From Isoetes taiwanensis (Eukaryota > Streptophyta > Lycopodiopsida > Isoetales > Isoetaceae): a stretch of DNA of 64,000 nucleotides. The DNA is taken from the NCBI GenBank assembly GCA_021234155.1, contig JAJEKV010000004.1:7072109-7136108 (forward strand), read 5' to 3'. Positions 22,972 to 56,394 of the stretch are shown piece after piece (the first letter of the stretch is position 1; every line of letters begins with the position of its first letter). Both the position numbers and the translations under genes were made by a program. Below the pieces are notes generated by a model that was not told where the DNA came from, did not search any database, and saw only the letters and a program-made list of their open reading frames with translations.

Positions 22972-23378
22972 ATGGCAACGGAAGCAGAAGCGGAAGTAGG
23001 GTTTTCACAAAAGGGCCCAGAGCATCGTTCTTGGCGATGGCGGGATTTGCATTTTGGTCATAGGTATCCATTGGCCGGAGCTATTCTTTGCTCACAAAAC
23101 GATTTCTCTTCCTTTTCTCTTTCTATCAAATGCAACCGTGAAGAAATGAGAGGTCATTAGAGCATGCCTATGACAAGACCTTTTGCATGCCATTTTCTTG
23201 CTTATAAGACCTCTGGATTTTTCGTATTTTCGCTCCTGGAGCGCTTCTTGATGATAGCAATGACTTCACCAGAATCTTCCTGCAGCTCCAAGGTATTAGA
23301 GCTTTATCTTTTTCCCTTTTCTGTTTTGTTTCTGGCGGATTAACCTAGACAATTCTAATTTACTTGGAATGTAGGGAG
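22972..23378 (+). other. Possible 5' exons of a host gene interrupted by element C
   Basis: A short frame begins at an ATG (22972, MATEAEAEVGFSQKGP) on the strand opposite RPB7, as in a divergent gene pair. It ends at 23160, and a second coding-like stretch with a possible splice donor lies at 23240-23295. Element C starts at 23379 just after TTGGAATGTAGGGAG. If the element is removed, AATGTAG|GGAGCTTGAG could form a splice acceptor leading into 36800. No protein family is recognised, so this is tentative. Confidence 0.25.
23374..23378. repeat. Target-site duplication of element C, left copy
   Basis: GGGAG directly precedes the LTR start TGTGACG. The same five bases follow the right LTR at 36795-36799. 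A perfect 5-bp duplication is standard for Ty3/gypsy integration and fixes the element boundaries. Confidence 0.92.
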
Positions 23379-24931
23379 TGTGACGTTCCCCTAAAATATA
23401 CGGCATACGTACGTATAGTCACGTCACCATACATTTCTACATCCCTAGACATGTATACGACCAATGTGGGGGTAATGACTAAGTTATCTATAACTTAGCC
23501 AACCTAAGGTAAGAAGCCATTTCCACATGGCCTCACCTCATAGGCATACCACCACATAGACTCATCTATAGGAGCCAAGTGGCACTCATGTAAACCCTAA
23601 CATATAAAAAGGCTAAACCCTAAACCCTAGCCACTTTTGGCTCCACCAACCTCAGACCCACCAGTTCGTGATCAGAGCTCCGACTCGAAGACCGTCTTCG
23701 ACAGCCTGGGTTGCAGCAGCAGTTGCCAGAGATGGAGAACCAGGGAATTAGCGGTAGCGCGTCAGGGGCAGGTATTTCGAATAGATTCCAGTATTGCAGT
23801 AGAGCCATTCTAGAACCTATTGTTCTGAACATGAACCCTAATCAATGAACCCTAACTATAGGTTAGATGTATGTGATTAGGATTAGTTGTTATTCTCTGT
23901 TATTATCAAGATTATGTTGATATGATGTTGGTTGATCTCATTTTTGCACCTCTTGTGTATTGGGAAGGGGGGTAGAGACCTAGTAGCCACTAGTAGAAGA
24001 TGCTCCTAGTTTAGACCCACTAGTTCCCATTATTATGCGGCCTGTGCATAGAGCCCACCTGGCTACGGAGGCTATGGAATGACTGAGCACCACACAACGG
24101 GTCGTGGCAAAGTGGAGGGAGGACCTGGCGAGCGCCAACTCTTTGGGGTCTCATAGCGGGCTAGACTCATAGTCGGTCACTTCGCGTGGGCTGGGTATGG
24201 GTCCGACACTTCCTGGGTCAATGGTGTCGCCCTGACTCTCAAGAGTTGCAAGTGTCGGCTTGGCTCTTGTTTTGGGGAGTTCAGTCGGGTATGGACGTGT
24301 GTCGCCACGATCCTCTAGCCGCCCATGGAGCCACTGCACTCCGGGAGGGGGAGATGCAACCCTTCCTACCTCATCGGACCGGGGAGATGCAACCCGGAGT
24401 AGTCTCGTTGGGTGATACCATGGGATTACGTCTCCGGCAGGTTACAGTCACGTCAGAGCCTGATTTAGCCTATCTGCAAAGTATGCACAGGAGGGGCGGA
24501 TGGAGTGGTCAACCCTAGCCATTGTCTATTGCCAGCCCAAGTCATTGCCATAACTTCGGTTACTGTTTCTATCCGAGGCCCCGGTAGTCGGTCGACTCCC
24601 CCTTGAGTCTGAGCCCTGGGTAGGAGCCTCTATTTGATGTATTTGATGCATTCATTGTATTGTTGTATTTGATGACATGGTTAGATGGATTATCACTACC
24701 CTTCGAGGTAGTCTATTGTTATTGTTGCTAGTGCTTATGTGTATATTTTGCTTCCGCTGACATAGGGACCCCATAGAGGACGGGACGGAATGACACCTCT
24801 GTGTCCTCTACTCGATCGTCTGGACCCCAGACGCGAGTTAGACAGAGGGCCCATACGACGGGTGCCGTTGGATGGGGAAGGTCCTTCGATGTATACGGCG
24901 GGCTGTCGTATATAGCGCAAGGAGCGTCACA
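23379..24931 (+). repeat. 5' LTR of element C
   Basis: Starts TGTGACGTTCCCC and ends GGAGCGTCACA, so its ends form the inverted repeat TGTGACG/CGTCACA. A TATA box (TATAAAAA, 23603-23610) is followed by CTAAACCCTAAACCCTAG, a telomere-like motif common in plant promoters. The first 270 bases differ from the 3' LTR at only about one position, while GC-rich stretches around 23660-23770 and 24050-24620 differ much more. Confidence 0.95.
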
Positions 24932-24932
24932 A

Positions 24933-24944
24933 TGGTATCAGAGC
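24933..24944 (+). other. Primer binding site, initiator tRNA-Met
   Basis: TGGTATCAGAGC begins two bases after the LTR. It is the standard plant site complementary to the 3' end of initiator methionine tRNA, where minus-strand synthesis starts. Confidence 0.95.
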
Positions 24945-25198: not shown

Positions 25199-25332
25199 AA
25201 ATAGACTTCCCGGTGGAATGTGGTGTAAATCCACAATAAATAACCTAGGGACCATTAGAGAATTTAGGGTTCTAAAATTATAGGGTCAATGTAAATAAAG
25301 GTGGTAGGAATAAATAACCGTAAATACCCCCA

Positions 25333-25455: not shown

Positions 25456-26472
25456 ATGGCACGTACGAAATCCACCGCCAGGAAATACCAAGCTCGTGAA
25501 GGTGTTCGACACGTAAGCATAGGCAAGCAGATTTACCCTGAGAAACATCCAAGAAGCGAGGGCGAAGAATCATCCGACGAACGGAGTTCACAGGAAGACG
25601 AGACGGTGGTATTAGTAGATTATGCGGAGTCGTCGTCAGAAGAACAGCAGTCAGAATCACAAGAACAAGAAGAATCGCAGCAGGGAGAGGACTCAGAATC
25701 GCGAAAAAGGAGGGAAGTACGCCAGGGTAAGCGAAAAGTAACACACGTGGCCACAGAGGACTCGGAAGAACAAGAGGAGTCAATTGCACGGGAGAGACGA
25801 TCTAAACGCCGCCTTGATAGGTATGGTAACTCGAGTCTAGTAATTCGTGATCAAGGACATCAGGAGCAAACAGAGCAAAATCTCCCGGAGCAAGCGATAG
25901 CACCGCCACCACCGTATCCGAAATGGCCTACCCATGGGAAATCAGATAAGAAGTGCAGAGCAGGGGAGAGACCATTAAGTCTCCAGAAGGATCGGGAATA
26001 CCGGAGGAAGTTGCAAGATTACCGTGCATATATGGAACAATGGGTTGCGTATAATCATTGGTATAGCACATTGAAGATTCCCAGATTTGTAAAAGGAGGA
26101 AGACCTCGAACGGATGTTCGGAGACCCCCACCTCGACCGGAGGAGCCGAAGAAACCGGCAAAGCATGGGCCAAACTCGAAGCACTCCAGGGCCCTAAGAG
26201 AAATTAGGCATTTTCAACAATGCGTAAATCTCTTGATTCGAAGAGCCCCCTTCGAGAGGCTAGTGCGAGAAATTATGCAGGAATTTACGACCCAGTATAG
26301 GGTTACCCCTATGATGCTCAGGGTTTGCCAAGAAGCAGCTGAGGCAGAGTTGTGTCAGTTGTTTGAGGAGTCAAATCTCTGCGCTATTCACGCAAAACGA
26401 GTCACTATTATGCCGAAGGACATGAATTTGGCAAAACGAATACGAAGGGAAAAGATATTGGGTTATTTTTGA
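25456..26472 (+). CDS. Histone H3-like protein carried by a retrotransposon
   Basis: The 338-residue uninterrupted frame starts [10 protein letters not shown], matching the first nine residues of mature histone H3 except Q5S, so lysines 4 and 9 are kept. Residues 20-245 are a long, highly charged tail rich in Glu, Ser, Lys and Arg (for example [18 protein letters not shown]). Residues 246-338 are an H3 histone fold: [20 protein letters not shown] for the alphaN region, loop 1 of the same length as canonical H3, and [20 protein letters not shown] for loop 2 to alphaC. The last is almost identical to H3. H3 is normally 135 residues, so the tail is about 200 residues longer. The gene lies between the LTR and gag, on the element's coding strand, and has its own TATA-like site. 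The natural reading is a captured, diverged H3 variant that could enter nucleosomes or recruit H3-tail readers. Deposition in chromatin is inference. A CENH3 identity is unlikely because loop 1 is not lengthened. Confidence 0.88.
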
Positions 26473-27975
26473 CGGATTACAGAATCTTGAAATCTTGTCA
26501 TAATTATTAGTAAATGTGTATGTTCAAAGATATTCGTTCTATATGTTTAAACTATGTATTAAAATTTGCTATAATCTTGTCGTAATTATTGTTTAAAATA
26601 AACTATGTGTTCCTAGTTAGTGAATTCCTATGTATTAAACTATGATTTTAATCTTGTGTGAGTGATTCCTATTTTTCTTAATTGTTGAATCATTGTGAAC
26701 ATAAAATAGAACGAGTTCATCACATTAAGCCAGTATTCCAGTATTTGATATGAATAGAAATTAATATAAGCTAGCCCTCTGACACTGTGAATAGATATAC
26801 TTTCTATGCTATAGTAATCAGATATACTTTCTATGAATCAGATATACTTTCTGATATAGCTAACAGTGCGCATATAGCCTGTTACATAGTTATTCTGTAA
26901 TTAATCTTTCAGCAATATGGATACTCATTAACAGCCGGTACTTAAATAAACTTATTCGAAACTGTCATGGCAGCTTCAAATCTGTGGCAAGCAGATCCTT
27001 ACCAGGCCGAAATTGAAAGAAAAGCTGGAAGATATTTAGTCACAAGCCCATAGCTTGAAAAAAAAAAAAGCATACCCAAGCCGGAAATAGGACGTTTCTT
27101 ACCCAAGTTCTGATCTTTACTGTAAAAATAGAGCTGTAGCAGAAGTATACTTGCATCAAATATAGATGGGAAGGACAGAATAAGCCCAAATATGGCACAG
27201 GGCGACGCATGCCGCGCCCTGGCCTCAAACAAAACTCTAGAAGACGTCCCAGGCGCGGGATGAGTCGCACCTGCACGAGAAACATGGTTTTTTTTTCGCC
27301 TCCTCTGCCAAAACTTGCAACTCGACAAAAATCACTGCAAGACTTGACCAAAACCTCAACAGCAGCCGAACCACCTGAACAAGGGGCCAAGGCGACGCAT
27401 GCCGCGCCCCTGGGCCATGCCAGAACCTCGCCGCAGCTCCTAGCGCGGGATCCGTCGCCTTCTCTATATCTCTGCTGAACCCTTGCCCTAAATCGATTTC
27501 GTAGATAGCTTATAAGCCTTTTTCCTTTTTTTCCACATGTCTCTTAACTTTTTAAAAGCTCCTTGAACTCCATTGGTTTGGTTTTCATTTGTTTCGACAT
27601 GTACTAAGGACCACAAAGTTCTTACGCCTCCTTTTGCCCACAATTCCTTATTTGCTTTGCTTTTTAAGCAATCCTTGTTTGCCAAGTCCCATTGTGCTAG
27701 GTGCTCCTTGTTTGAAATATTTAGTGCTATTATAATAGTGTCTAGCCTTGTCCACATATGCTTAGCCTTATTCATTAATGCCTTACGTCTACACCAACTT
27801 GCCATGAATTTTTTTTCCTTGCCTAGACCAACTTGCCATACCATATTAATGACAAACAAGTGAAAAAGGGGCACTAAGGGATTATTTGAATTCTAAGCCC
27901 CCAAGAGCCACCCAGCCTACCCAAACATAAACATTAGAAAAATTAGGGTTTAGAATGAAACCCTAAATGCCCTTT
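26473..27975. other. Spacer inside element C between its two extra genes
   Basis: About 1.5 kb with no recognised coding sequence. The first 500 bases are AT-rich and could be 3' UTR. A GC-rich part repeats GGCGACGCATGCCGCGCCC at about 27202 and 27391. A minus-strand frame at 27488-27874 shows no motif. The spacer is longer than the 350 bases between the equivalent genes of cassette 2, so part of it may be an insertion. Confidence 0.5.
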
Positions 27976-28087: not shown

Positions 28088-29597
28088 ATGGCCTAGAGAA
28101 TTTGTGCAATGGTACCGCAACTTCGAGCATATCACGGAAGCACCAATGGACGAGGTATTTCAAGTATTTCAAAGATACCTTTGATTTGGGTGAGACAATA
28201 TCCAGGACGCCTTATTATCAAGATATTCTTGCTCGATACAATCAAGAGCTCCAGAGCCAAGAAGTAAGACTTCAAGGACAAATTGGAACGTGGATCTCTC
28301 TGAAAGCTATCACGGCAGCACTGAGCCATATAACAGGGAAAACAATTAGAAAAAGGACTGAAAGAATGCCCGCATACATGACATGCAAGGTTCAAGGGCA
28401 CAAATACTTATCAACACAAGCACCTTAGCAACCTTTTTGCATTATCGTGCAATAAAAGCGGGATTGGGGAACCGTCCGGTCACCCCCTTGATCTCGCACC
28501 ATTGAATATGAGGGCAGATAGGCCATATTTAGAAGAACTGGACCTCAAGTCCAACCTTCTAGAGGGGCCATCAGCGGAACATCAGCAGGAAGAAGAGGAT
28601 TATGAGGAAGAAGTCTATGACTTCGAAAATGAACCCAGATTAGCCAAGCAGTTGGAGAAGTACATCGAGACCACAGAAGACCTCCCAAGAAAGGCAACAG
28701 CTCCCCCAGTTGGAATCACATCTCTTACACCAATTATTATCGAAGGGGAGGAGTACCTTTTTGCAGATGATATCTTACACCTACCGTACTTCGCATTGAT
28801 CAAGGTCTCCGCTTGGATGAACTCCCCGGCTATCATCATCGATGCTTATAACGATGACTTCATCGATTATTCGAGCGTGAGAGCTTCCAAGAGAGATAGC
28901 TGAAAAGGAGACCTATACCACACAGAACATCACCGACATACAAGCATATGATTTTATCAAGCATCGGATGCAGCACCAAGATCTTCCAGATGAGGACGAG
29001 TTTCAGGCAATTCAAGCAAGATTGTTTAAGAGTGGGAGCACAGCCAAACCTAAGCAAGCCACATCATCATGGGGCCAAACTCTGAGGGGCAGTCACATTA
29101 ACCTTGATAGTGCCATATCCATGAAGAAGGATCATGATGACTTGATGGCCATAGAAATACAGGGTCGGGCAGCCATGAGGAAAGGGTCGGGATCTGCAGC
29201 CGGCATGGGAAAAGCCTTACGCTACTATCTTCCTTCGCTCACTAAAGGCCAAATAGTAGTTTTTCACAAGCAGTTTAGCCACAGAGGAGAAGAGGCAGTT
29301 TACTTCCTATCAGCACTCTCCGGCTTTGCGACTCATTCTAAACTTCGCGACAACATTGACCATATAATTCTAATTAGGAGATCTGTGGCCTTGCATTACC
29401 TTGATTTTGCTCGGGGATACCTTCGAGATGGACCCTTAGCGGTAATGGCCGCACGGACACATGACTTGCCCCGAGAAAAGGTAGCTCCAGCACTTGAAGG
29501 ACACTCGACATGGAACATGCTACGAAACGTCGGCCATGGCCTCAAACTCAAGGACATTAAGGAGCACTTCAAACCCAAACGTCGGCGTCAGCACTAG
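28088..29597 (+). pseudogene. Acidic partner protein of the H3-like gene (element C copy)
   Basis: Coding sequence is spread over four frame segments. These are about 28100-28184 (FVQWYRNFEHITEAPMDEVF), about 28150-28428 (GTWISLKAITAALSHITGKT), 28502-28903 (acidic EEEDYEEEVYDFENEP, then LTPIIIEGEEYLFADDIL) and about 28890-29597 (LPDEDEFQAIQARLFKSGST, KGQIVVFHKQFSHRGEEAVY). Every block has a counterpart in the same order in the cassette 2 gene at 40938-42330. The shared order proves a real protein family. Frame changes could be introns at 28428-28502 or damage elsewhere, and a frameshift near 28880 looks like damage. The C-terminal half ends in a basic tail (FKPKRRRQH). The family is unknown to me. 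Acid-rich tracts beside a histone gene suggest a histone-chaperone role, which is inference. Confidence 0.6.
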
Positions 29598-29781: not shown

Positions 29782-31551
29782 ATGTTTGCAGCCAGGAACT
29801 TCACAACCACTCCACAGAATCAAGGAAGTCAAGGCCAAGCCTCTAATTGGGCACCAAGAAACTTATTCGGCCGAGAAGCACAGGAGGTCGAGATGACACC
29901 AGCAGAGATAAACAGGCGCCTGGTAGAAATGGGCAGGCAAATGCGCGAGTTGGTGCAGATTGTCACCCCACTCATTCGAGGGGAGGAATATGGACCACAA
30001 CAACCACCTCTTCAGGAAGAGGAACATCAACTCAACAGTCAGCCAGAACCACAACCTGCTCCACAGTCGTCCGGACACAACAAGAGAAAGAAAAGGACCA
30101 GAAGATACCAAAACTCTTCGAGTTCAGGCTCAGACGACAGCTCGAATGATAGCTCAGATAGTGACTCTGACAGCAGTTCAGACAGCTCACATAGCAGGCA
30201 CAAGCACCGCAGAGCAGAGGATTATCAAAAGAAAATAGACAGTGCAATGAGCAATGTCTGGAAAACACGCAAGCTGGGACAGTTTTCAGGGAAAGACAGA
30301 TCAGGAATGGAAGCTGAAGCCTGGCTAGATGAGATGGAAGAATTCGGGAATTCATATGGCATGAAGGACAAAGATATTGGCAAGGTAGCAACTGCCAACT
30401 TGATAGGACCAGCGCGCATATGGTGGAAGGGGTATGCAAAGTCAAATAGGCTGAGGAGAAACAATTGTCGATTCAAAACCTTCAGCAAGGCTTTCCGTAA
30501 GCATTACGTGCCACGCTCACATACTAGCCGTCAGATACAGCAGTTCTACCGCCTGGACCAAGGGAATCTGTCTGTAGCCAAATACACAGAGGAGTTTATG
30601 AGGCTAAGGTTAAATGTTCCCAGGATAACAGAAAGGCAGGCAGTTGATGGTTATATAGAGGGGCTTAATAGCAACATCAAAAGATTAGTCCGTGCAATAA
30701 ACCCCAGGACAGTAGGGGAAGCAGAAGATAAGGCTTTGAGTCTGGAGGAGACACCGCAAAACCCAGCGCAGAGACAGTCGTATTACGACAAGGGGAAATC
30801 AACAGGTAGCTTCAACCAAAAAGCGCCAACCCCTGCACAGGGAAGAGCACAACAGTACCAGGGTAAAAATGACAAAAAGACATCCTTTAAGGAACCTTAT
30901 ACAGCAGCTTCCTCGGCGGGAAAGTCTGTGAAGCAATTTTTGAACAGCATACCTAAGGAAAAAAGGGACGAATGTATAAGGAAAAAGTTGTGCTTCAGGT
31001 GCTTCCAACCAGGACATCGCACTCACGAGTGCCCTTTTGTCATGCAAGCAGCTATGGCAGATCTTGAAGGATGGGATTCCCCAACAGACATTGACGTCGA
31101 CGAGGAGGAGGCCCAAGACTTCATCGAAGGTGAGTGTAGAATTTGTGCAGCCATAGAAACCGAAAATGTGGAGAGTCAGTCCACTGTCATTTTAGCAGAG
31201 GGCATTATAGATGATAAACCATATCGAGTCCTAATAGACACAGGAAGCTCCCACAACTTCGCATCTCCTAGATTGGCAGTGCTACTCAAAACAAAGATCC
31301 TCAAGTCAAAGCCCAGACCAGTGAGCATGGCAAGTGGAGCAATACGCCATACAAAAGGAAAAAGAGTGAACTTTGATATAGCATTGAGCGGGGCAAATTT
31401 GAACATGGGGGCTGAAGTCATGGATATTGGAAAATATGATCTCATAGTCGGCATGGAAGTCTTAAAGCCCATTAAAAGCAAATCATCGATTGTGATAAAC
31501 ATGAGATATCAATCATGGCACCTAATGGCAAACGTTTTTGGTCAAAGGTAA
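29782..31551 (+). CDS. Gag-protease of element C
   Basis: The 589-residue open frame contains, in order: a coiled N-terminal part (AEINRRLVEMGRQMRELVQI), a basic stretch (NKRKKRTRRYQ) and a Ser/Asp repeat run of about 35 residues. The capsid core follows (EAWLDEMEEFGNSYGMKDKD, ARIWWKGYAK, YTEEFMRLRLNVP). Next comes a CCHC zinc knuckle CFRCFQPGHRTHEC (about residues 408-421) and a retropepsin with catalytic LIDTGSSHNF (about residue 485) and YDLIVGMEVL. Gag forms the particle and protease cuts the polyprotein. The active site is intact and the frame is unbroken. The Ser/Asp run after a basic patch is unusual for Gag. The frame ends before pol, so pol expression would need a frame change or the fusion has been broken. 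Confidence 0.9.
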   Translation: MFAARNFTTTPQNQGSQGQASNWAPRNLFGREAQEVEMTPAEINRRLVEMGRQMRELVQIVTPLIRGEEYGPQQPPLQEEEHQLNSQPEPQPAPQSSGHNKRKKRTRRYQNSSSSGSDDSSNDSSDSDSDSSSDSSHSRHKHRRAEDYQKKIDSAMSNVWKTRKLGQFSGKDRSGMEAEAWLDEMEEFGNSYGMKDKDIGKVATANLIGPARIWWKGYAKSNRLRRNNCRFKTFSKAFRKHYVPRSHTSRQIQQFYRLDQGNLSVAKYTEEFMRLRLNVPRITERQAVDGYIEGLNSNIKRLVRAINPRTVGEAEDKALSLEETPQNPAQRQSYYDKGKSTGSFNQKAPTPAQGRAQQYQGKNDKKTSFKEPYTAASSAGKSVKQFLNSIPKEKRDECIRKKLCFRCFQPGHRTHECPFVMQAAMADLEGWDSPTDIDVDEEEAQDFIEGECRICAAIETENVESQSTVILAEGIIDDKPYRVLIDTGSSHNFASPRLAVLLKTKILKSKPRPVSMASGAIRHTKGKRVNFDIALSGANLNMGAEVMDIGKYDLIVGMEVLKPIKSKSSIVINMRYQSWHLMANVFGQR

Positions 31552-31750
31552 GAAAATTGCCTCAATAATGCAGTGCATGTCATTAAAACAATTGCGTAAA
31601 TGCATCTCCAAGGATGAGGTTGATTATATCCTTAGGCTAGAAGCCATAGATCCAAACGAAAAGAATAAGAAGGAGAATGAAAATTTGAAACAATTACCTA
31701 GGGCAATTGGCAAGTTAATTAAAGAATTTCATGACCTATTTCCTGGATGA
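31552..31750 (+). pseudogene. Protease-RT linker of element C, frameshifted
   Basis: The segment after the gag-protease stop reads on in another frame (KASIMQCMSLKQLRKCISKD-like, then [15 protein letters not shown]). It ends at a stop at about 31748-31750, right where the conserved SRGVE lead-in of RT should follow. This gives at least two breaks between protease and RT in this copy. Confidence 0.65.
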
Positions 31751-33839
31751 AATCAGAAATTACCGCCTTCACGAGGTGTCGAATGTGAAATCACTCTTGC
31801 ACCGTGATGCAAAACCAATTAGCAAAGCCCCATATAGGATGAGCACACCTGAGCTAGCTGAGCTCAAGAAGCAACTGCAAGAATTATTAGAGATTGGGTT
31901 CATTAGGCCAAGTGTATCACCGTTTGGTGCACCCATCCTCTTCGTCAAGAAGAAAGACGGAAGTCTACGGATGTGCATTGATTATCGTCAGCTCAACAAG
32001 CAAACGATAAAGAACAAATATGCATTGCCAAGAGCGGATGATCTAATGGACCAGCTCCAAGGAGCAAAGCTCTTTTCAAAAATTGATTTAAGGTCTGGTT
32101 ATCACCAAATAAGAATCAAGGAGGAGGATATCCATAAGACTGCCTTCAGAACGCGGTACGGGCATTATGAGTTCACAGTCATGCCTTTTGGTCTATCAAA
32201 TGCTCCAGCAACGTTTATGCGTCTGATGAATGACATCTTCAGGGACTTTCTAGATGAATTTGTCATCATATTTTTCGATGACATTCTAATTTATAGCAAG
32301 TCTATGGAAGAACATGTCGTACATTTGAGGAGGGTATTAGAAAAGCTAAGACGACATCGTTTGTATGCTAAACTTTCCAAATGTCACTTTGCAACAACTA
32401 GAGTGGAATATTTGGGGCATGTGGTCACAGCAGAGGGAATCTCAACGGACCCAGTAAAAATAGAAGCCATAGTGGATTGGCCAGCACCAAAGAATGTCTC
32501 GGAAGTAAGAAGTTTTCTTGGCTTAGCAGGATACTACCGTAAATTTGTAAAGGACTTCGCTAAGTGGGCATCCCCTTTGTCGGACCTTACTAAGAATAAA
32601 AAGGTAAAAGATTGGGAGGCACACTGGCTAGAGAATGTTCAAGCTTCATTCGAAAAGCTCAAAGAAGCCTTAACAACAGCACCAGTGCTCACCCTACCAG
32701 ATCCAAATAAGGACAAGCTAGTAGCAACTGATGCAAGTAAGCTAGCAACTGGTGGAGTCCTCATGCAAGAAGGAAGAGTGGTAGCCTACGATTCTAAGAA
32801 GATGAATGACGCTAAACAGCGCTATCCAACCCATGATCAAGAACTTCTAGCTGTTGTGAGAGCTCTTCGTATTTGGAGGCATTATTTGCTTGGCAGGAAA
32901 TTTCAGTTAGATACTGATCACCAGAGCCTCCAATACATTTTTACACAACCACTCCTCAACTTGAGGCAAAGACGCTGGATGGAATTCCTCGAAGAATATG
33001 ACTTCGAGATAGTCTATAAGCCAGGCAAATTAAATGTGGTTGCCGACGCACTCTCTCGCCGACCATTAGAAACTCGAGTGCATTGCAATGCCATCTCCAC
33101 CTTGTCCAGTGAATTCGGGAAAAGGATTGAAGAGGTCTTGCCTTCAAGCAAGGAATTCAAGGAAATATGGGCTAGTCTTTGCAAAGAAGCAAGGACAGAC
33201 AAAGAAAGAGAAGCTTATAAAAGATATAAAAAGGAAGGTAATCTTTTATACCACAAGGACAAACTTTGCGTCCCAGAGGCATCGGGAGTAAGGAAGTTAA
33301 TTCTTCATGATACTCATAATAGCCCAATAGCCGGCCACGCGGGGTTCATGAAAACTTACTTCAAGATAAGAAGTAGTTACTTCTGGCCAGGCATGAAAAG
33401 GGACATCGCCAACTATATTCGGCACTGTCAATTGTGCCAGCAAACAAAAGCGGAGCAACTCCGCATTCCAGGAACCTTAGAACCCTTGGCAGTGCCAAAT
33501 GCTAAATGGGAGGTAGTGAGCATGGATTTTATAACCGGACTCCCAAAAACACCAAGAGGCCATGATGCCTTAATGGTGGTGGTCGACAAGCTATCAAAGA
33601 TGGCTCACTTTTTGCCGTGTCGAACCACCGATACAGCTTTGGATACCGCCTTGCTTTTTGCAAAGGAAATATTTAGATTGCATGGTATGCCAAGGGAAAT
33701 CATCTCTGATAGAGATCCTAAGTTCATAAGTGCCTTCTGGAAGGATTTCTTCAACACGATCCAGACAAAGTTGTCCATGAGTACAAAGATATCATCCCCA
33801 AACCGATGGGCAAACGGAAACGGACCAATCGAATATTAG
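31751..33839 (+). CDS. Reverse transcriptase, RNase H and integrase of element C (broken at both ends)
   Basis: The long frame holds a complete RT ([58 protein letters not shown], catalytic FFDDILIYS) and a complete RNase H ([40 protein letters not shown]). It also holds the integrase zinc finger ([17 protein letters not shown]) and most of the core ([19 protein letters not shown]). It runs out of frame near 33795, before the third catalytic residue. The upstream join to protease is also broken. Individually the RT and RNase H look intact. The enzymes copy the RNA and insert the DNA. Confidence 0.9.
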
Positions 33840-34165: not shown

Positions 34166-34605
34166 TTAAGATAAAAAGTTAAACAAGCAAAGCTTCGAAT
34201 CGGCAATTGCAAGAAGCTTGCTCCAAGGTGGGCGGGACCATTCAAAATTGTTCAGAGAATAGGTAACCAATCCTATAAATTGGATCTCCCCACCCACTTG
34301 AAGGTTCATAAAGTCTTCCATGTAAGCCTTTTGAAAAAGCATACTCCTAATCCAGAGGAGATATTGGAGACTCCAACCTTGTTGGAAATGACCGAAGAAC
34401 AACTTGAGATCGTCCCAGAAGCTCTTCTTGACAAGGCATATAAGAAAACAAGGAGATCTCGCCTCAATATTTGGTCAAGTGGAAACACTTGCCAGTGGAA
34501 GACGCGACATGGGTACTTAAATCTGATCTTGAGAAGCAGTACCCACAGTTTATGGAGCAATGCAAAGGCCAGCTCGCCACGGACATCGTTAGCAATGATT
34601 AAGGC
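34166..34605 (+). pseudogene. Integrase tail and chromodomain of element C, frameshifted
   Basis: A GPF/Y-type module appears as APRWAGPFKIVQRIG-like sequence near 34220-34260, then LPTHLKVHKVFHVSLLKKHT. The chromodomain begins EIVPEALLDKAYKKTRR near 34410. A frame change near 34455 then exposes VEDATWVLKSDLEKQYPQF and a stop near 34600. Both halves of the chromodomain are present. It marks element C as a chromovirus, which targets integration to marked chromatin. Confidence 0.75.
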
Positions 34606-35237
34606 AAGGTGAGTGCAGGCATTAAGTAGCGACTCGACCTTGACGGGTCAAAGAGTCCACGCAATCACCTTTGCGTAGCCAAGACGCGTGTAAGTTAAGC
34701 ATGAGATCATGGGCGATGATGGGATCACCTTTAATGTTCCCTACGCCATGATGTAGGCATCAGACATGCATGCATCTTAGGCATGATAGGACACATCTCC
34801 ACGGCCACTATGGGGGAAGCATCCTCCCCTATCTTGGGAAATGTTGCATTCATGTAGGTTAAATTAAAAATAAAAGGGTGTGGACCCTTATAAAACCACA
34901 AATTACTAATTAAACTAACGTGATGTGCTCTTGCAGGCCAATAGAGGAGAGGGGATTGTCAAGAGGGAGCGCATCATGACATAAACAGGAGTTATAACAT
35001 TTCATTCAGTTATTGAACTCTATGAATGTTATAATCTATTATAATAAATAAGTCTAAATAAATAAATTGTTGGAGCTATATAATTTTCTCAGAACGAGAT
35101 TATAGCTTCACAATTATATTGCTGTAATTGGCATTAGTAGTTCATAACTATAATAATATTGAAGTGTTATGGTGCATATGTGTTGTGATATGTGATGCAG
35201 GTTCACCTTATGTAATCTTTGAGGACAAAGATAACCC
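34606..35237. other. 3' untranslated region of element C
   Basis: About 630 bases between the chromodomain and the polypurine tract. No gene is recognised. The segment is moderately AT-rich and ends with GATGCAGGTTCACC and GAGGACAAAGATAACCC just before the purine tract. Confidence 0.6.
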
Positions 35238-35247
35238 AAGGGGAGAA
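35238..35247 (+). other. Polypurine tract of element C
   Basis: AAGGGGAGAA lies directly before the 3' LTR start TGTGACG. It is the expected primer for plus-strand DNA. Confidence 0.9.
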
Positions 35248-36794
35248 TGTGACGTTCCCCTAAAATATACGGCATACGTACGTATAGTCACGTCACCATA
35301 CATTTCTACATCCCTAGACATGTATACGACCAATGTGGGGGTAATGACTAAGTTATCTATAACTTAGCCAACCTAAGGTAAGAAGCCATTTCCACATGGC
35401 CTCACCTCATAGGCATACCACCACATAGACTCACCTATAGGAGCCAAGTGGCACTCATGTAAACCCTAACATATAAAAAGGCTAAACCCTAAACCCTAGC
35501 CACTTTTGGCTCCACCAACCTCAGACCCACCGGTTAAGTGATCGAGTTTCAGGCTTCAAGACCGCCTTCGACGGGGTGGGTTGCAGCCGGTTGCCGAGAG
35601 ATGGAGAACCAGGGAATTAGCGGTAGCGTCGTCGAAGGCGGTATTTGAATAGATTCCATTGTGCAAGAGAGCCATTCTAGAACCTATTGTTCTGAACATG
35701 AACCCTAATCAATGAACCCTAACTATAGGTTAGATGTATGTGATTAGGATTAGTTGTTATTCTCTGTTATTATCAAGATTATGTTGATATGATGTTGGTT
35801 GATCTCATTTTGCACCTCTTGTGTATTGGGAAGGGGGTAGAGACCTAGTAGCCACTAGTAGAAGATGCTCCTAGTTTAGACCCACTAGTTCCCATTATTA
35901 TGCGGCTCGTGCATAGAGCCCACACGCTCACGGAGGCTATGGAATGACCGAGCACCACACAACGGGGGTCGATGGCAAAGTGGAGGGAGGACCTGGCGAG
36001 CCCCGGCTCTTGGGGTCTCATAGCGGGCTAGACTCATAGTCGGTCACTTGCGTGGGGCTGGGTATGGGTCCGACACTTCTGGGTCAATGGTGTCATACCA
36101 CGACTCTCAAGAGTTGCAAGTGTCGGCTTGGCTCTTGTTTTGGGGAGTTCGGGCCGGGTATGGGCGTGTGTCGCCACGATCCTCTAGCCGCCCATGGAGC
36201 CACCGCACTCGGGAGGGGAGATGCAACCCTTCCTACCTCATCGGACCGGGAGATGCAACCCGAGTAGTCTCGTTGGGTGATACCATGGGATTACGTCTCC
36301 GTGAGATTCTGATCCACGTCGAGCGATTTAGCCTATCCGCAAAGTATGCACGGGAGGGGCGGATGGAGTGGTCAACCCAAGCCATTGTCTATTGCCAGCC
36401 CAAGTCATTGCCATAACTTCGGTGCGTTCTATCCGGAGGCCCCTCAGCCGCCGGTCCGACTCCCCTTGAGTCCGAGCCCCGGGTAGGAGCCTCTATTTGA
36501 TGTATTTGATGCATTCATTGTATTGTTGTATTTGATGACATGGTTAGATGGATTATCACTACCCTTCGAGGTAGTCTATTGTTATTGTTGCTAGTGCTTA
36601 TGTGTATATTTTGCTTCCGCTGACATAGGGACCCCATAGAGGACGGGACGGAATGACACCTCTGTGTCCTCTACTCGATCTTCTGGACCCCAGACGCGAG
36701 TTAGACAGAGGGCCCATACGACGGGTGCCGTTGGATGGGGAAGGTCCTTCGATGTATACGGCGGGCTGTCGTATATAGCGCAAGGAGCGTCACA
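35248..36794 (+). repeat. 3' LTR of element C
   Basis: Same ends as the 5' LTR (TGTGACG and CGTCACA) and the same TATA box (35472-35479). AT-rich portions match the 5' copy almost base for base. GC-rich patches differ by clustered substitutions and small indels. Confidence 0.95.
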
Positions 36795-36799
36795 GGGAG
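36795..36799. repeat. Target-site duplication of element C, right copy
   Basis: GGGAG follows the last LTR base and matches 23374-23378 exactly. Confidence 0.92.
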
Positions 36800-38258: not shown

Positions 38259-39506
38259 ATGTCTCCTATCATTTCTGTGTTCTTGCCTCATTTACAGAAC
38301 TCCCAAGGTGAAGAAGTAGGAGGTTTTGTCTCAATAGGTTCGTGGGTGAGTATGCTGCCATCAACGAGGGGCGAGCATAGAGTTAAGCGACAAAGGCGAT
38401 CAGACGTGCGGACACATTGGATAGGTAGGATAAAAGAGTTCAAGTTGAATTCTAGCGGCCGGAAAGTGGAAAGTATAACAATACGACATGCATATACCCC
38501 TTCTGATATGGCCAAAGAGCTAATCTCCACCAAAAACAGCTTCCCAAAATTGCCCGCAAATGGTAACCACCTTAATCGGATCACACAACGCGAAGCTGTC
38601 TGTCAGCTACTTAACTGCGTAGAGATAGTTTCGTGTCGTGTGATCTCCTTGTCTTTTCATTTCTTTCGTTGACACGTGTTTACAAACAAATTTATTGTGC
38701 AGGTTTATGTTTATCAGACGTCGTGGATGTCATTCCGGCCGAAAGCATTAGTAGTGTACTTGGCGTGTATCACATAGACATCGAAATTGTTCTTTTCCAA
38801 GGTATGGATGCCGTGACCTTGCGGGGTATAGGCATCTGGTTTTACGGACATGATTACAACGTAAAGGTCAGGAAACCGAGCTTGAGGCCGATTGAAACCG
38901 AGCTTGAGGCCAATGTAATTGCAATGAAGAAATGCCTGGCTGACGAGGTACAAGCGGGAATGTCTGAAAACGGAGGCGTGAGGATGAGTTTCAAAATCTT
39001 CACACCGTTTGAGGTATTTGCTAACATATTCCAGATGGCGCAGGAAGTTCAAAAAGCTCCAAAGACATATACGTGCTTTCTCTCCCCTGCCGGTTTTGTG
39101 GATGGCTTATTTTTGGTTCCGACCTGGGATGTTCGATTCCACGAATCATCCGATCAACTAACAGAGTGCCGCGTAGTTAAGTTCTCCTTTAAGTTCAGAT
39201 ACTTTCTTCCAAAACAATATTTATACGTTAATTGTCAACTAGAATGAAGGAAACAGAAAAAGAGAGGCTGCACAACTTTTTGGGAGCCGTTTGAGGACCA
39301 TAACAGACTGGCGAGGGGAGGAAGTCATTTATACAGCCACCATGGAAATCGAATGGCCATTATCAGAGCTAAGAGTGCTAATGGAGACAGAGGAGATAGC
39401 TAACGACTTCCATTATTTCATTGATGGCATTCGGGTTGGTTACAGGCAAGAGGGAAACGTAAAGTTTAGTGAGTTCGCGATCAACAAGAAATTGTCTATC
39501 GCCTAG
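38259..39506 (+). CDS. BAH-like domain protein, three exons (cassette 2)
   Basis: The proposed exons are 38259-38562, 38703-39175 and 39243-39506, joined by two GT-AG introns (38563-38702 and 39176-39242). The total of 1041 bases gives 346 residues with no stop. Residues from about 25 read GGFVSIGSWVSM, then THWIGRIKEFKLNSSGRKVE and HAYTPSDM. After the first intron comes GLCLSDVVDVIPAESISSVL. This order and the LSD..D.IP motif fit a BAH domain, which reads nucleosomes or histone tails in chromatin regulators. The remaining residues match nothing I know. Intron 1 contains a palindromic hairpin shared by the cassette. An upstream ATG or exon is possible because a frame is open before 38259. The next gene is an H3-like protein, so a chromatin role is consistent. 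The BAH call is by eye and moderate. Confidence 0.55.
38579..38645. repeat. Cassette 2 hairpin 1 (in intron 1 of the BAH-like gene)
   Basis: GATCACACAACGCGAA (38579-38594) and TTCGTGTCGTGTGATC (38630-38645) form 16-base inverted arms with two mismatched positions around a 35-base loop. It lies wholly in the predicted intron. Confidence 0.8.
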
Positions 39507-39691
39507 CGCTTTGAATCTCGGCTTTTTATTTGTGTTTTTGTCCGATGTTTTTTTAGGGTTCCATATTTTGTCGGGTATTTTTTTAGGGTTCCGTACAATT
39601 ATTTTAAAAAGTTACCATCATATTTTACTTTAACTTCTATTTTTTACTATTTATCTCTTGCCAGTTGTCTATTTTTTGTCAGTGTTCGTAG

Positions 39692-39717: not shown

Positions 39718-40589
39718 ATGGCAAGAACTAAGCAAACTGCAAGGACCCATCCAGGTGGTGTAAGGCCAGGTGATTACATTAGTCCGCCTCCTTCATCCAC
39801 ATCTGAATCTGAAGTCTCTGATAGAGATTCTCCTCCTCCGACCATGCCTAACAGAAGATCCGGAAAAGAAATCCGCATGACAGACGGTGGGAGAAGCAGC
39901 TCGGGAGTAAGTAGGGAGATGCACTCCGGTTTGGAGACAGAGGATGAAAATGTGCGAGATCGCGAGCAGAATATGACATCGGATTAATTATTGGGCAGCC
40001 GCCTCTTCTTGCTCTTCCTGCTCCTCCTGTGGATGCGCCAGGACCTTCAAATCAAAGGAGGAGGCCCAACGCCAGAAAGGGGAAGGCGACCAGAAATGTG
40101 AGGAGACGGCCGGAAGAGTCGGCCGTGCAACAGCCTGCAAATGCTGGGGTGAGGAGACGGCCGGAAAAGTCGGCCGAGCAACAGCCTGCAAATGCTGGGG
40201 TGGGTGAGAGTAGTGGCCGGAAGCGGAAGACGAAGCCTGGCATTAAAGCGCTTCGCGAGATTAAGAAGTATCAGAAGAGCACTGAGATGGTCATTCCGCG
40301 TCTCCCATTTGCTAGGTTCGTGAAAGAGATTCTGCAAGAGTGTGGTGCGATACATCATACCAGTTACAGAATTCAAGCAACTGCCTTAAATGCTCTTCAA
40401 ATGGCTTCGAAAGTAGTTGGTGTCGGTCTGTTCGAGGACTCGCAGCTTGCAGCAATACATGCCAAGCGGGTGACTGTCATGCCCAAGGACATGCGCCTGG
40501 TCTTACGCATAAGGGATCCCGAGTACTATGGTCAAAATTTTATGGCTGAATACAACAAGAAGAAAGACCCCCCAGAAAAAAGGCCGTGA
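39718..40589 (+). CDS. Histone H3-like protein with lengthened loop 1 (cassette 2)
   Basis: The frame starts MARTKQTAR, identical to the first eight residues of mature H3, then departs ([10 protein letters not shown]); lysine 4 is kept but lysine 9 is a threonine. A GTAAGT at 39907 and a TTGGGCAG acceptor ending at 39998 define a 92-base intron that joins the two open frames in phase, giving 259 residues. Without splicing there is a stop at 39985-39987. The tail has a tandem 17-residue repeat ([17 protein letters not shown] and a near copy). From about residue 147 it is an H3 fold: [20 protein letters not shown], then loop 1 four residues longer than canonical H3, then GLFEDSQ and [20 protein letters not shown] lengthened loop 1 is known from CENH3, but the MARTKQTAR start is not. 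A C-terminal basic extension ([10 protein letters not shown]) follows. It is a diverged H3 variant of unknown role, and its neighbours match those in element C. Confidence 0.82.
39907..39998 (+). other. Predicted intron in the cassette 2 H3-like gene
   Basis: The 5' site GTAAGT is a perfect consensus and the 3' site is TTATTGGGCAG. The 92-base removal keeps the frame and avoids the in-frame stop. No palindrome lies in this intron. Confidence 0.6.
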
Positions 40590-40723: not shown

Positions 40724-40790
40724 GGATCACACGCGCAGCAAGCATTGTGCTTTTTTTTTTGCACATAGTAGTTTTCGCGTCGTGTGATCC
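40724..40790. repeat. Cassette 2 hairpin 2 (between H3-like and partner genes)
   Basis: GGATCACACGCG (40724-40735) pairs with CGCGTCGTGTGATCC (40776-40790), leaving a few unpaired bases in the right arm. The loop contains a T10 run. A telomere-like CCCTAACCCTAACCC follows directly at about 40793-40808. Confidence 0.75.
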
Positions 40791-40937
40791 AACCCTAACC
40801 CTAACCCAAAAATGTACGGACAAATCTCCCCACAACGGCAGTGTCCCCTTTCATAATCGACAACGGCTACTTGAGTTCAGAAGTGGCAGCGCCTTACCGC
40901 TCCTAAACATCATCTTGCTTTCGTCGTCTGCTTCGCC

Positions 40938-42330
40938 ATGGATTGTTATGTGAAGTTCCTGGAATGGTATGCATCTGCCCCACATGACAACGAGGAAGTT
41001 GCGCCGACTGCGATTTATCTGTTCTATTGCAAAGAGTTGGACATCATGGCAAACAGTAGCGAGCTTGGATGCTATCGCGAGGTTGCTTTAGCTTTCAGCC
41101 GGACCGCTTGGTCTCAGCACACGTCCTTTGCAGATGTCCCTGGCTCGTGGATTCCAAAACCAGCTCTAGAGGAAGCGATTTCCCATTTGCAAGCAGTGAA
41201 GACGTTTTTCAAGAATGCTGCGCAGCGGGCTCCTCCTGGCTGCGTCCTTCTACTTAAGAAGGTAACTTATTTCTCTTTGCCATTTGCATTCGCTAGTTAT
41301 TGCATTCTGCTCGGCCAAACCGAAGATACACTTGAAACAATGAAATCTTTAAGCCAAGGAGGGTCAATTATGTGTGATGATGCTGACTATGACGTAGAAA
41401 TGGAGATAGATCTACAAGAAGAAGAGCAAGAATGTAAGAATTTTGGCATCGACGCACTGGCCTTGGGTGAACCAGAGGAGGAAGATGATTCTGAAGGTGA
41501 TGAGGATGAGGATGAGGATGAGGATGAGGATGAAAAGAAGTTGTCTGATATAACGCCAATTTTAGTGGAAGGCAAAGAATACTTATTGCTAAGTGATATA
41601 CTGAGGAACCCGTCTTTGTTACAAATGTGTGCTAAGGAAGACGAGCTTATCAGTACCTTGGCCGAATGGGTAAACCTAGGCCTAGATTTTGAAGAGGACT
41701 TGGACAAAGAGATGTTTGAAGTGTCTTCTTATACTGGCAATGCCATAAAGCTTAAAGAAGCCTATGAGAGGCTGGAGTCTCGATTTGCTCAAGAGGAGGC
41801 GAATCTGCCAACGGAAGAAGAATTCCAGCGTCTCCGTGCAAAGCTGCCAACAGGATCTACAGGTTTGGCAGGCCCTTCAGTCAATCGCGGCAGCATAAGC
41901 CTCATGGATGAGGAGAAATGTGAAGAAGATAAACTTGAGGGTTCTTACTTGTGGGAAGTAGATGATTTTTCTTGCCGACATGCACGCGGGGGACAGCCCT
42001 CAAGATTCGTTAATGGGGAGATAATCGTCTTCAGCAGAACTTTCAGTCCAAAAGGTGCAGAGTTTGTCTATTACATCCGTGCATTATGCATGTTCGGGAA
42101 CCATTCCCAATTGGCATCAAACACTGAAAGGGTGATAGCAATTTGGCGGGATATAGTTACAATATTTTGACGACCAAGCCAGTCTGCGGGCGAGCAATAT
42201 GTTAAATTTTTTAGATGCTGGTTTGACTCACCCAAGGTTGGAAGCTGGGGTCGATAACATGGAAGTCATTGCCTTGTTGGATCAGTGCGGCAGGGAATTG
42301 AAAGAGCATGAAATTGACGACGAAGCTTGA
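40938..42330 (+). CDS. Acidic partner protein of the H3-like gene (cassette 2 copy)
   Basis: The main frame is open for 410 codons to 42170. A change of frame near 42155 then continues the homology to a stop at 42330 (LRASNMLNFLDAG, then ELKEHEIDDEA). Blocks in order are KFLEWYASAP, GSWIPKPALEEAISHLQAVK, a strongly acidic tract with EEEDDSEGDEDEDEDEDEDE, DITPILVEGKEYLLLSDIL, LPTEEEFQRLRAKLPTGST, and NGEIIVFSRTFSPKGAEFVY. Each has a counterpart in the element C copy at 28088-29597. The family is not one I recognise. Acid-rich tracts are usual in histone chaperones, so a chaperone for the adjacent H3-like protein is a reasonable hypothesis. The late frameshift may be damage or an unrecognised intron. 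An AATAAA at 42406-42411 is a possible polyadenylation signal. Confidence 0.68.
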
Positions 42331-42432
42331 AAAATTGGAAGTTATATATTTTCCAACTTGTATCTGTAAAATTATTTATGTATAGATTGTATTACCGAAA
42401 TTATTAATAAAAATTATTTTATTTGTATTTAT

Positions 42433-42494
42433 TCACACCACGCGAAATACATCAGTCTGATTTTCTGTCATATCTAGGTTTTCGCGTCGTGTGA
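42433..42494. repeat. Cassette 2 hairpin 3
   Basis: TCACACCACGCGAAA (42433-42447) and TTTCGCGTCGTGTGA (42480-42494) are inverted arms with one mismatch, around a 32-base loop. It lies just after the polyadenylation signal of the partner gene. Confidence 0.85.
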
Positions 42495-42554
42495 TATTTC
42501 TCTCGAAGAAATGAAATATTATTGGAAAAAAAAACAATTAATTTATTTATTCCT

Positions 42555-42614
42555 CACACGACGCGAGAAGCAACGGTCCATTTTCCTGACCGACGGCATC
42601 CTTCGCGTCGTGTG
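42555..42614. repeat. Cassette 2 hairpin 4
   Basis: CACACGACGCGA (42555-42566) and TCGCGTCGTGTG (42603-42614) are perfect 12-base inverted arms around a 36-base loop. It sits about 25 bases before the TATA box of the next open frame. Confidence 0.9.
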
Positions 42615-42639
42615 GCTCAAGCTACTACGAAATCTATGT

Positions 42640-42735: not shown

Positions 42736-42966
42736 ATGGCATCTTCATCTTCCTCTAGCAAGCAACCACGCCAAGATAGCACTCCCCAGCGCCCAGAGCT
42801 GCCCGTGGACATCACCCTTGCAGTGCTGATGAAGAGATTCAAGGAGATCCACGATGAAAACAGCCGTCTCATCTCCGAGAATATGGAGGCGGTCGACAGA
42901 TTAGCCTTCACGAGGGCGCTGCTGCATGAGCGAGACATTGAGCTCGCGGAAACATTTGCCATTTGA
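42736..42966 (+). CDS. Small Ser-rich coiled-coil protein, probably truncated (cassette 2)
   Basis: The 76-residue frame begins MASSSSSSKQPRQDSTPQRP and continues into a likely coiled coil (MKRFKEIHDENSRLISENME, then RLAFTRALLHERDIELAE). It ends exactly at the junction with minus-strand gypsy RT sequence near 42966, so its last residues are fortuitous and the original protein was longer. A good TATA box precedes it. No family is recognised. The heptad-like region suggests dimerisation. Confidence 0.45.
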   Translation: MASSSSSSKQPRQDSTPQRPELPVDITLAVLMKRFKEIHDENSRLISENMEAVDRLAFTRALLHERDIELAETFAI

Positions 42967-51640: not shown

Positions 51641-52091
51641 TTTTTCTTAATATTTTCTCATTTGTCTGCTGTTTCAAAGCTGGTTCACTGCTTTCCTTTT
51701 GATTTGCTTTCTGTTTGTGCTTTCTTGTGTTTAGTTATTGTTTACTTGAATACCTTGTACAGGCATCAGTGTTCTTAGATGCTAATAGTAGTGGCAAACA
51801 CCCGACTTAGGAATCCTGAGAGATAGGAAGAAAAGTATTGCATAACAGTAAGAGAACATCACTATAAACCATTCAGAAAAGAAAGTGCAAAACTGTCTAT
51901 GATTTATAAAAGAACATAACTATGCATGAAATTGTTTTACACAAACTTAAAATAGGAATTGCCTTCTGATTGAAAATTTCACTCCACATATCCTCCTTTG
52001 CGGGAGGTCGCGAGAGGGGAACCCGGCTTTCTCGGTGGGCGGTCGGGGAATCCCTCGACTTGCCAACAATCCAAAAAGTATAGGCCTTATT

Positions 52092-52109
52092 CTCGACTCG
52101 CGAGTCGAG
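52092..52109. repeat. Cassette 3 palindrome, first perfect copy
   Basis: CTCGACTCGCGAGTCGAG is a perfect 18-base palindrome, with flanking TT and AA extending it by two pairs. Other perfect copies lie at 52490-52507, 55916-55933, 56209-56226, 57964-57981 and 58976-58993. One-mismatch or near copies lie at 52253, 53087, 59103 and 59229. More degenerate or TTCG-spaced versions lie at 52781, 52860, 52904, 55511, 55570, 55630, 55686 and 55976. None is found outside 52-60 kb. Confidence 0.95.
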
Positions 52110-52229
52110 AATGTCTCGACTTCAGGGGCGAGCGAGGAAGTGTACACTACGGATTGTTGGTTGGTTGAGGGATTCTCGACTTCGCCGATCAAATGCACCG
52201 ATTACCAACTCCTTTCTAGCCAAAGAAAG

Positions 52230-53290: not shown

Positions 53291-53517
53291 TTAGACCTAG
53301 CCTGATCTAAACATTCCAAGAAAAAATACACCTAAAACTGTTCGCTAGTTGCTGCCGAACATTCCATGACCAGAACACGGAATTGTTCACGTTTACCCCC
53401 GATCCATTGTTTCGGTGCCGAGCATCTCTCAACCCAGAGAGTAATTCATCTCTCGAAGCTGAGAAATGCTCGACAAGGAAACAATAAATCCGTCGAGCTT
53501 ATGAGCAGTTCCATGAT

Positions 53518-53808
53518 CTAAACACCGACGGCATGTTCTACACACAAAATAACACAGGCATCTCTCAAACTCACCTCTTCACGCAGTAATTCCTTGGGCC
53601 ATTGTATCACAGATCCTGCAGCCTCTCCGAGAGTCTTTGCTTCTTCTGTCGGTCTCATCAAGAGTGCATTCGCATATAATACTTGTATCAATGCGATTCT
53701 CGTGTATCCCCTTCCATGGCTGGCTGCGGTGTAGAGTTCCGTGTGTGGCGGCTCCTCTCCGCTTGCTACCTTAGCTCCGTGCTCATCGATCAAATCAACT
53801 ACTTGCAA
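53518..53808 (-). other. Minus-strand exon resembling plant DUF8039-type proteins
   Basis: The minus frame reads ELYTAASHGRGYTRIALIQV, then ALLMRPTEEAKTLGEAAGSV and IQWPKELL. The pattern of a beta-rich stretch, LMRP..E..TLGEA.G..I.WP..L recalls the DUF8039 domain of plant transposon-linked proteins. GAAGAG|GTGAGT follows WPKELLREE, so the frame probably splices out near 53575. An acceptor-like TTATTGCAAG lies at the other end. Its partner exons were not found. Confidence 0.35.
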
Positions 53809-55460: not shown

Positions 55461-55499
55461 GCCGAGTGCCCGCTACATAAGGTAAATAAGCGTCTACGA

Positions 55500-56240: not shown

Positions 56241-56394
56241 CTCCTATTTAGTGTTTACTTCGGGTGTTAGTAGATACTTTCATGCTCTAACATTGGGACA
56301 TTGACTGAATGCAGCCCGTATCCTGACCAGATCATACACGCTCGGCAACAGTGGAAAGCATTGTGTTGTCCTCAGCGTCCTAAAGGAAACAGGC

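What the first reader, a model, noticed from the sequence alone, without database searches (positions are those of the whole stretch)
25456..26472. A histone H3-like gene carried inside an LTR retrotransposon
Seen directly: the open frame lies between the 5' LTR (with primer site) and gag of element C, whose ends are fixed by a 5-bp target duplication. Its start is [10 protein letters not shown] and its last 93 residues are an H3 fold, including [20 protein letters not shown]. Established: canonical H3 starts [10 protein letters not shown] and contains [15 protein letters not shown] in loop 2. Inference: the element captured a host H3-type gene and kept it open for 338 codons, which suggests selection. 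I know of no described retrotransposon that encodes a histone.
Basis: partly seen in the sequence, partly recalled or inferred. Interest (0 to 1): 0.94.

Follow-up and report, generated by a model that had tools for sequence, protein, structure and literature searches.

The report
Histone H3-like gene inside plant retrotransposon
A plant retrotransposon carries an intact gene for an odd, long-tailed histone H3 next to a second gene of unknown function, and a distantly related copy of the same gene pair lies just outside it, so the pair seems to be an old unit that the element picked up.

Summary
A 338-codon H3-like frame (25456-26472) lies inside a Ty3 chromovirus with paired LTRs, GGGAG target duplication, primer site, gag-pro, RT-RNaseH-integrase and a chromodomain relic. 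H3 folds are 49% identical over 90 residues (E 2e-25), X proteins 29% over 140 (E 7e-14). Silent sites are saturated while amino-acid changes are held back in both proteins. Best reading: the chromovirus took up a pre-existing two-gene cassette as genomic DNA. Whether the gene helps the element is untested: only one copy was seen, because the genome search did not complete. The open frame alone is weak evidence of selection, since gag-pro is equally open. The H3-like protein is no closer to its neighbour than to CENH3 or CENP-A, so the shared cassette rests mainly on X and gene order. Transposon-borne H3 is known in fungal hAT elements; I found no report of one in an LTR retrotransposon.

The parts
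23374..23378 (.). target site duplication GGGAG, left
23379..24931 (+). 5' LTR (TGTGACG...CGTCACA)
24933..24944 (+). primer binding site TGGTATCAGAGC (tRNA-iMet type, identification recalled)
25265..25271 (-). telo-box motif upstream of H1
25456..26472 (+). H1: intact histone H3-like gene, 338 aa, ARTKSTARK start, about 230 extra residues, H3 fold at the C end
   Evidence: low-confidence model
27201..27459 (.). two palindromes of about 69 bp (27201-27269, 27391-27459) between H1 and X1
27944..27965 (.). telo-box motifs upstream of X1 (27944 and 27959)
28088..29597 (+). X1: gene X copy in the element, with at least three frame steps; its start is not certain; longest open piece with a start codon 28968-29597 (209 aa)
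29782..31551 (+). gag-protease frame, 589 aa, open
31731..33839 (+). reverse transcriptase, RNase H, integrase frame, 702 aa
33840..34609 (+). broken end of integrase with SH3-like piece (34175-34609) and chromodomain piece (34444-34599, PF00385 E 8.4e-9)
35238..35247 (+). polypurine tract AAGGGGAGAA
   Evidence: seen in the sequence
35248..36794 (+). 3' LTR
36795..36799 (.). target site duplication GGGAG, right
39554..39590 (-). telo-box motifs upstream of H2 (39554, 39584)
39719..40589 (+). H2: second H3-like gene, outside the element; starts [10 protein letters not shown], frame step between about 39950 and 40029, H3 fold in ORF 40029-40589
40791..40803 (+). telo-box motifs upstream of X2 (40791, 40797)
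40938..42170 (+). X2: 410-aa relative of X1 with an acidic tract; a likely tail continues in another frame to about 42330

Best explanation
A plant Ty3 chromovirus took up a segment of genomic DNA holding two neighbouring genes, a divergent long-tailed histone H3 variant (H1) and gene X, between its primer site and gag. The cassette is older than the element copy: a far-diverged H3-X pair in the same order stands outside the element. Shown: the element's anatomy, both genes inside it, the second pair, and protein-level constraint on both genes in the history that separates the pairs. Inferred: the genes came with their own promoters, so uptake was of DNA or of a read-through genomic transcript, not of processed mRNAs. 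H1 keeps the loop 2 to alpha3 stretch by which H3 pairs with itself (role recalled), so if made it would probably enter nucleosomes and place a long mixed-charge tail, headed by an H3K4/K9-like motif, on chromatin. X, with an acidic tract, may handle the histone as a chaperone. In this copy X and pol are broken, so here the gene is probably a mobilised passenger, not a working part of the element.
For: LTR pair, target duplication and primer site enclose both genes. Histone fold, E 1e-28. X1/X2 29% over 140 aa, E 7e-14, with weaker matches in order over the rest of X (run without composition correction); H1/H2 49% identity over 90 aa, E 2e-25; same order and strand. Silent difference saturated (pS 0.83 and 0.78; shuffled codons about 0.77) while replacement difference is 0.39 and 0.475 against 0.73 in shuffled codons, with a third-position excess (53/41/76 of 115 codons; 77/66/102 of 151). 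Telo-box within 200 bp upstream of 4 of 4 cassette genes against 4.1% of background stretches. TATA-like words 123 and 109 bp upstream of H1 and X1. The two loci share almost no DNA-level similarity, one 80-bp match in the fold, so the split is old. No direct or inverted repeat longer than 9 bases is shared by the cassette's edges inside the element.
Against: Only one element copy was seen, so uptake before the last jump is not shown. H1 is closest to canonical H3 (53%) and no closer to H2 (47%) than to CENH3 (48%) or CENP-A (49%), the last two recalled; so the H3 sequences alone do not show that H1 and H2 form one lineage, and their constraint could date from separate descent from H3. The shared cassette rests on X and gene order. 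No H3-X pair in ordinary host DNA was seen. The telo-box pattern was noticed after the fact, and X2 shows no TATA-like word. H1 lacks significant CpG depletion at codon junctions (12 seen, 14.8 expected) where gag-pro and pol have it, which could mean a later insertion; but the X1 end piece beside it is depleted (7 of 16.2) and the X1 middle piece is not (12 of 15.7), so this is unclear.
Confidence: 0.5

Rival explanations
1. The H3-X cassette is a working part of a family of histone-coding chromoviruses: the element makes its own H3 variant and a partner to shape chromatin on its DNA or at its target sites, possibly read by its own chromodomain integrase.
For: H1 is open while X and pol in the same copy are broken. 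Both proteins show constraint between the two cassettes. Linkage of H3 and X is kept although the proteins differ at half or more of their residues, which is easiest if they travel together. The element has a chromodomain, and H1 begins with an H3K4/K9-like motif.
Against: No second element copy could be examined. X1 is broken. Openness of H1 is not special given gag-pro. No LTR pair was found around the second cassette.
Confidence: 0.2
2. The H3-X cassette is itself a mobile unit, as in the fungal hAT elements with H3L and a central ORF, and it jumped into an already integrated retrotransposon.
For: Two cassettes in different settings 14 kb apart. Fungal hAT elements carry an H3-like gene plus an ORF of unknown function. 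H1 shows less CpG decay than gag-pro and pol. Palindromes near both X genes.
Against: No transposase recognised in the frames scanned (short frames were not scanned). No terminal inverted repeats or target duplication at the cassette edges (the longest shared words are two 9-mers, about what chance gives by hand estimate). X1's end piece is CpG-depleted like gag-pro. Palindrome families differ between loci, and a third family occurs elsewhere in the window.
Confidence: 0.2
3. One-off dead passenger: a host H3 variant gene and its neighbour happened to be trapped and are decaying; the open H1 frame is luck.
For: X1 has at least three frame steps and pol at least six by my reading, up to two of which may be natural. 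With 9 steps over about 7.4 kb of once-coding sequence, a 1-kb gene stays clean with a chance of about 0.3 (hand arithmetic). H2 and X2 have frame steps too.
Against: A neutral simulation with the LTR divergence gives 0.004 for H1 staying open, but it also gives near zero for the open gag-pro frame, so it is not trustworthy. Linkage of H3 and X in two places is not explained.
Confidence: 0.08
4. Assembly or base-calling artefact joining unrelated pieces or breaking frames.
For: Several breaks are single frame steps, and the LTRs differ mostly in the middle.
Against: Matching LTRs, exact target duplication and primer site and polypurine tract at the right places; homologous frames at two loci.
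Confidence: 0.02

Closest known systems
hAT DNA transposon with histone H3-like gene (H3L), Pyrenophora tritici-repentis (PMC3538342, passages read)
   Same: A transposable element with an H3-like gene plus an ORF of unknown function between its ends, multiplied in the genome (10 long and 16 short copies in the reference genome of that paper; the central ORF is in the long form).
   Different: Class II hAT element in a fungus. Here it is a class I LTR chromovirus in a plant; the H3 has an extra stretch of over 200 residues, and its linked gene also occurs with an H3-like gene outside the element.
hAT-captured histone H3 in Pseudocercospora fijiensis and relatives (PMC6710886, abstract and outline)
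   Same: A core histone gene captured and amplified by a transposon.
   Different: DNA transposon; in P. fijiensis the captured copies are inactivated by RIP; derived from the housekeeping H3.
Genes captured by plant LTR retrotransposons, rice and sorghum (PMC3726574, passages)
   Same: Host genes inside LTR elements; captured sorghum genes enriched for chromatin organisation.
   Different: The word histone does not occur in that main text; supplements were not seen.
Plant chromoviruses (Ty3, integrase with chromodomain)
   Same: Primer site, gag-pro-RT-RNaseH-integrase order, SH3-like piece and chromodomain; the best identity at 94% coverage among the 120 pol relatives listed is 56%, and 14 of the 120 bear PITA names (Pinus taeda, reading recalled).
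   Different: About 4.85 kb with two extra genes between the primer site and gag.
Plant CENH3 (centromeric H3)
   Same: Divergent H3 with an unusual tail; H1 shares 7 of 21 jointly derived fold states with Arabidopsis CENH3 (sequence recalled).
   Different: H1 has no longer loop 1, keeps MPKD, and is closer to canonical H3 (53%) than to CENH3 (48%).

Membership tests
Ty3 chromovirus | gag, protease, RT, RNase H, integrase in Ty3 order between LTRs | tested here: met
Ty3 chromovirus | chromodomain at the integrase C end | tested here: met
   PF00385 E 8.4e-9, 35.7 bits against a cut-off of 25.1, at piece 34444-34599
histone H3 fold family | C-terminal fold matching H3 rather than other core histones | tested here: met
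canonical histone H3 | canonical tail [10 protein letters not shown]... of about 40 residues | tested here: not met
   only ARTKSTARK is kept; about 230 other residues stand before the fold
CENH3 | longer loop 1 and loss of canonical fold residues (features recalled) | tested here: inconclusive
   H1 loop 1 is canonical in length, H2 has 4 extra residues; Q68 and F84 are changed in both; shared derived states point both ways
CENH3 | location at centromeres | not testable with these tools
   needs antibody or tagged protein
hAT-H3L type element | hAT transposase and terminal inverted repeats around the H3 gene | tested here: inconclusive
   no transposase family in the frames scanned and no terminal repeats at the cassette edges in element C, but short frames and the ends of the second locus were not fully tested
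gene captured by an LTR retrotransposon | non-retroviral gene between the LTRs of an element with target duplication | tested here: met
gene captured by an LTR retrotransposon | present in more than one copy of the element | not tested
   The genome search unanswered in 20 tries

The most novel reading that the evidence does not exclude
A lineage of plant chromoviruses carries its own chromatin kit: a dedicated long-tailed H3 variant and a partner protein X, kept by selection as a linked pair, with the H3K4/K9-like tail and the element's chromodomain forming a self-recognition loop that protects, marks or targets element DNA. To my knowledge it would be the first class I element known to encode a nucleosome subunit for its own use.
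Probability: 0.17. Interest if true: 0.92.

Novelty: new variant of a known kind. Interest (0 to 1): 0.62.

Why it matters
If the cassette is a working part of the element, a transposon attacks or evades silencing at the level of the nucleosome itself, and the element's chromodomain would have a partner histone coded by the same element. Even as a captured cassette it shows a two-gene H3-X unit found twice at great divergence, with an X protein that gave no hit in the protein search, and gives a clear case for testing how LTR elements take up promoter-bearing genes.

Tried and rejected
CENH3 origin of H1: considered because of shared states ([13 protein letters not shown]); left open.

Openness as proof of selection: rejected. 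The simulation with mafft-based LTR divergence (102 differences in 1539 aligned sites, 16 indel events, K2P 0.070) gives a 0.004 chance for H1, but near zero for gag-pro and for the 702-aa pol frame, which are open. By blastn the same LTRs show 62 mismatches and 36 gap positions in 1568 columns, so the rate itself is uncertain.

Later insertion into the element: no terminal repeats or target duplication found; not excluded. CpG decay as a clock: mixed, since H1 is not depleted but the X1 end piece is. Codon usage did not separate the cassette from gag and pol.

Viral origin: no relative of H1 or of X confirmed in viral contigs (1 and 152 pattern matches); PHROGs gave nothing at E 0.1 for the X1 end piece, X2 and W.

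Protein collection: the H1 search returned 4560 proteins, 120 listed; the 9 that I read each hold two or more canonical or near-canonical H3 copies, and no listed hit covers more than 49% of H1. X2 search: 7994 candidates scored, none at E 0.01 or better; its acidic tract may have crowded the candidate list. Pol search to name the plant: only the 7977 candidates sharing most words were scored, 120 listed; no close species.

Papers: six phrases for a retrotransposon-encoded histone, 0 papers. Searches (15 of 54 listed; 20 of 33; 2 of 2; 7 of 7; 0; 12 of 19) showed no LTR element with a histone gene among the titles and abstract starts listed. A plant gene-capture review has 0 occurrences of histone (PMC13317346, passages). 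The library lacks most subscription papers and all bioRxiv preprints.

Full report

THE ELEMENT. LTRs 23379-24931 and 35248-36794 start TG and end CA, are flanked by GGGAG on both outer sides, and the 5' one is followed by TGGTATCAGAGC, the primer type matching initiator tRNA-Met (recalled). gag-pro is open at 29782-31551 and RT-RNaseH-integrase at 31731-33839. Pieces in other frames beyond that hold an SH3-like domain and a chromodomain (PF00385, E 8.4e-9). It is a plant Ty3 chromovirus; among the 120 pol relatives listed the best identity at 94% coverage is 56%, and 14 bear PITA names, which I read from recall as Pinus taeda. The species is not known to me. By my reading there are at least six frame steps from the end of gag-pro through pol (up to two, between gag-pro and pol, may be natural) and three in X1, none in H1 or gag-pro.

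Between H1 and gag lies gene X1 (about 28088-29597), and outside the element, 2.9 kb beyond its right end, stands a second pair: H2 (39719-40589, with one frame step in the tail) and X2 (40938-42170). H1 and H2 are 49% identical over 90 residues (E 2e-25). X1 (its 209-aa open piece) and X2 are 29% identical over 140 residues (E 7e-14), and weaker matches extend over the rest of X in order (without composition correction). DNA-level similarity is limited to one 80-bp match in the fold. X has no recognisable family (nothing better than E 0.2 in Pfam) and no hit at E 0.01 or better in the protein collection (with the caveat that an acidic tract may have crowded the candidates). X2 has an acidic tract of about 20 residues and X1 a shorter acidic stretch.

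HOW STRONG IS THE PAIRING. H1 is closest to canonical H3 (53%) and no closer to H2 (47%) than to recalled CENH3 (48%) or CENP-A (49%). Of fold positions changed in both proteins, H1 and H2 share the same new residue at 6 of 18, H1 and CENH3 at 7 of 21. So the H3 genes alone do not prove one H1-H2 lineage; the homology of X and the same order and strand do the work.

SELECTION. In 115 aligned codons of H1/H2 the silent difference is saturated (0.83) and the replacement difference 0.39; in 151 codons of X1/X2 they are 0.78 and 0.475. Shuffled codons give about 0.77 and 0.73. Both proteins were therefore constrained for much of the time that separates the copies. This does not show selection after H1 entered the element. 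The openness of H1 in this copy cannot show it either: gag-pro is also open, and 9 frame steps in about 7.4 kb leave a chance of about 0.3 for a clean 1-kb gene (hand arithmetic). A simulation from LTR divergence gives 0.004, but near zero for the open gag-pro frame too.

PROMOTERS. AACCCTA/TAGGGTT motifs (telo boxes; [quoted passage not shown] This was noticed after the fact. TATA-like words lie 123 bp upstream of H1 and 109 bp upstream of X1; X2 shows none within 260 bp. The genes look like ordinary plant genes that brought their promoters, not like processed copies of mRNAs; this is inference.

HOW IT MOST LIKELY AROSE AND WORKS. Most likely (0.5) the chromovirus took up an existing H3-X cassette as genomic sequence. 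If H1 is made, it would probably pair with H4 and enter nucleosomes, adding a long tail headed by an H3K4/K9-like motif; X may be a chaperone. These functions are inference. Rivals: a working part of a histone-coding element family (0.2), a separately mobile cassette that jumped in (0.2), a dead trapped passenger (0.08), an artefact (0.02).

WHAT IS KNOWN. hAT DNA transposons of fungi carry H3-like genes (Pyrenophora tritici-repentis, with an extra ORF of unknown function, PMC3538342, passages; Pseudocercospora fijiensis and relatives, PMC6710886, abstract and outline). Plant LTR elements capture many genes, and captured sorghum genes are enriched for chromatin organisation, but the word histone does not occur in that main text (PMC3726574, passages). 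My searches showed no LTR retrotransposon with a histone gene in what they listed. So this is a new variant of a known kind: a transposon-borne histone, but in a retrotransposon, with a diverged long-tailed H3 and a linked partner that recurs outside the element.

LIMITS. One window only; the genome could not be searched. CENH3 ancestry is unresolved. CpG depletion at codon junctions is weak in H1 (12 seen, 14.8 expected) and the X1 middle piece (12 of 15.7) but strong in the X1 end piece (7 of 16.2), gag-pro (19 of 41.4) and pol (26 of 44.4), so it does not date the cassette's arrival.

Noticed in passing
51900-59300: Many short palindromes of the type TTCTCGACTCGCGAGTCGAGAA scattered between unrelated open frames, one of them an NIF/FCP-like phosphatase (57913-58869, PF03031 E 3.4e-8); looks like a gene array with its own palindrome family.
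   Followed up: partly
38579-38645, 40725-40788, 42432-42495, 42553-42616: A different palindrome family (TTTCGCGTCGTGTGAT and its reverse, units of about 65 bp) lies between the genes of the second H3-X locus; 8 matches in the window, 7 of them here, against 0.58 expected. The left arm at 40725 was seen by eye only.
   Followed up: partly
38633-39505: Gene W upstream of H2, with a frame step near 39247, no known family and no counterpart found in the element.
   Followed up: partly
42736-42963: Short frame MASSSSSSKQ... with a very weak Shugoshin N-terminal match (E 0.036, below cut-off).
   Followed up: no
23379-24931 and 35248-36794: The two LTRs are nearly identical at both ends (1 difference in 200 and 1 in 161 aligned bases) but differ much more in the middle, which a single age does not explain.
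   Followed up: no
49213-49971 (minus): Frame with a weak DUF7869 match (E 2.2e-4, 21.3 bits, below the cut-off of 26), possibly a transposase-like remnant by recall.
   Followed up: no
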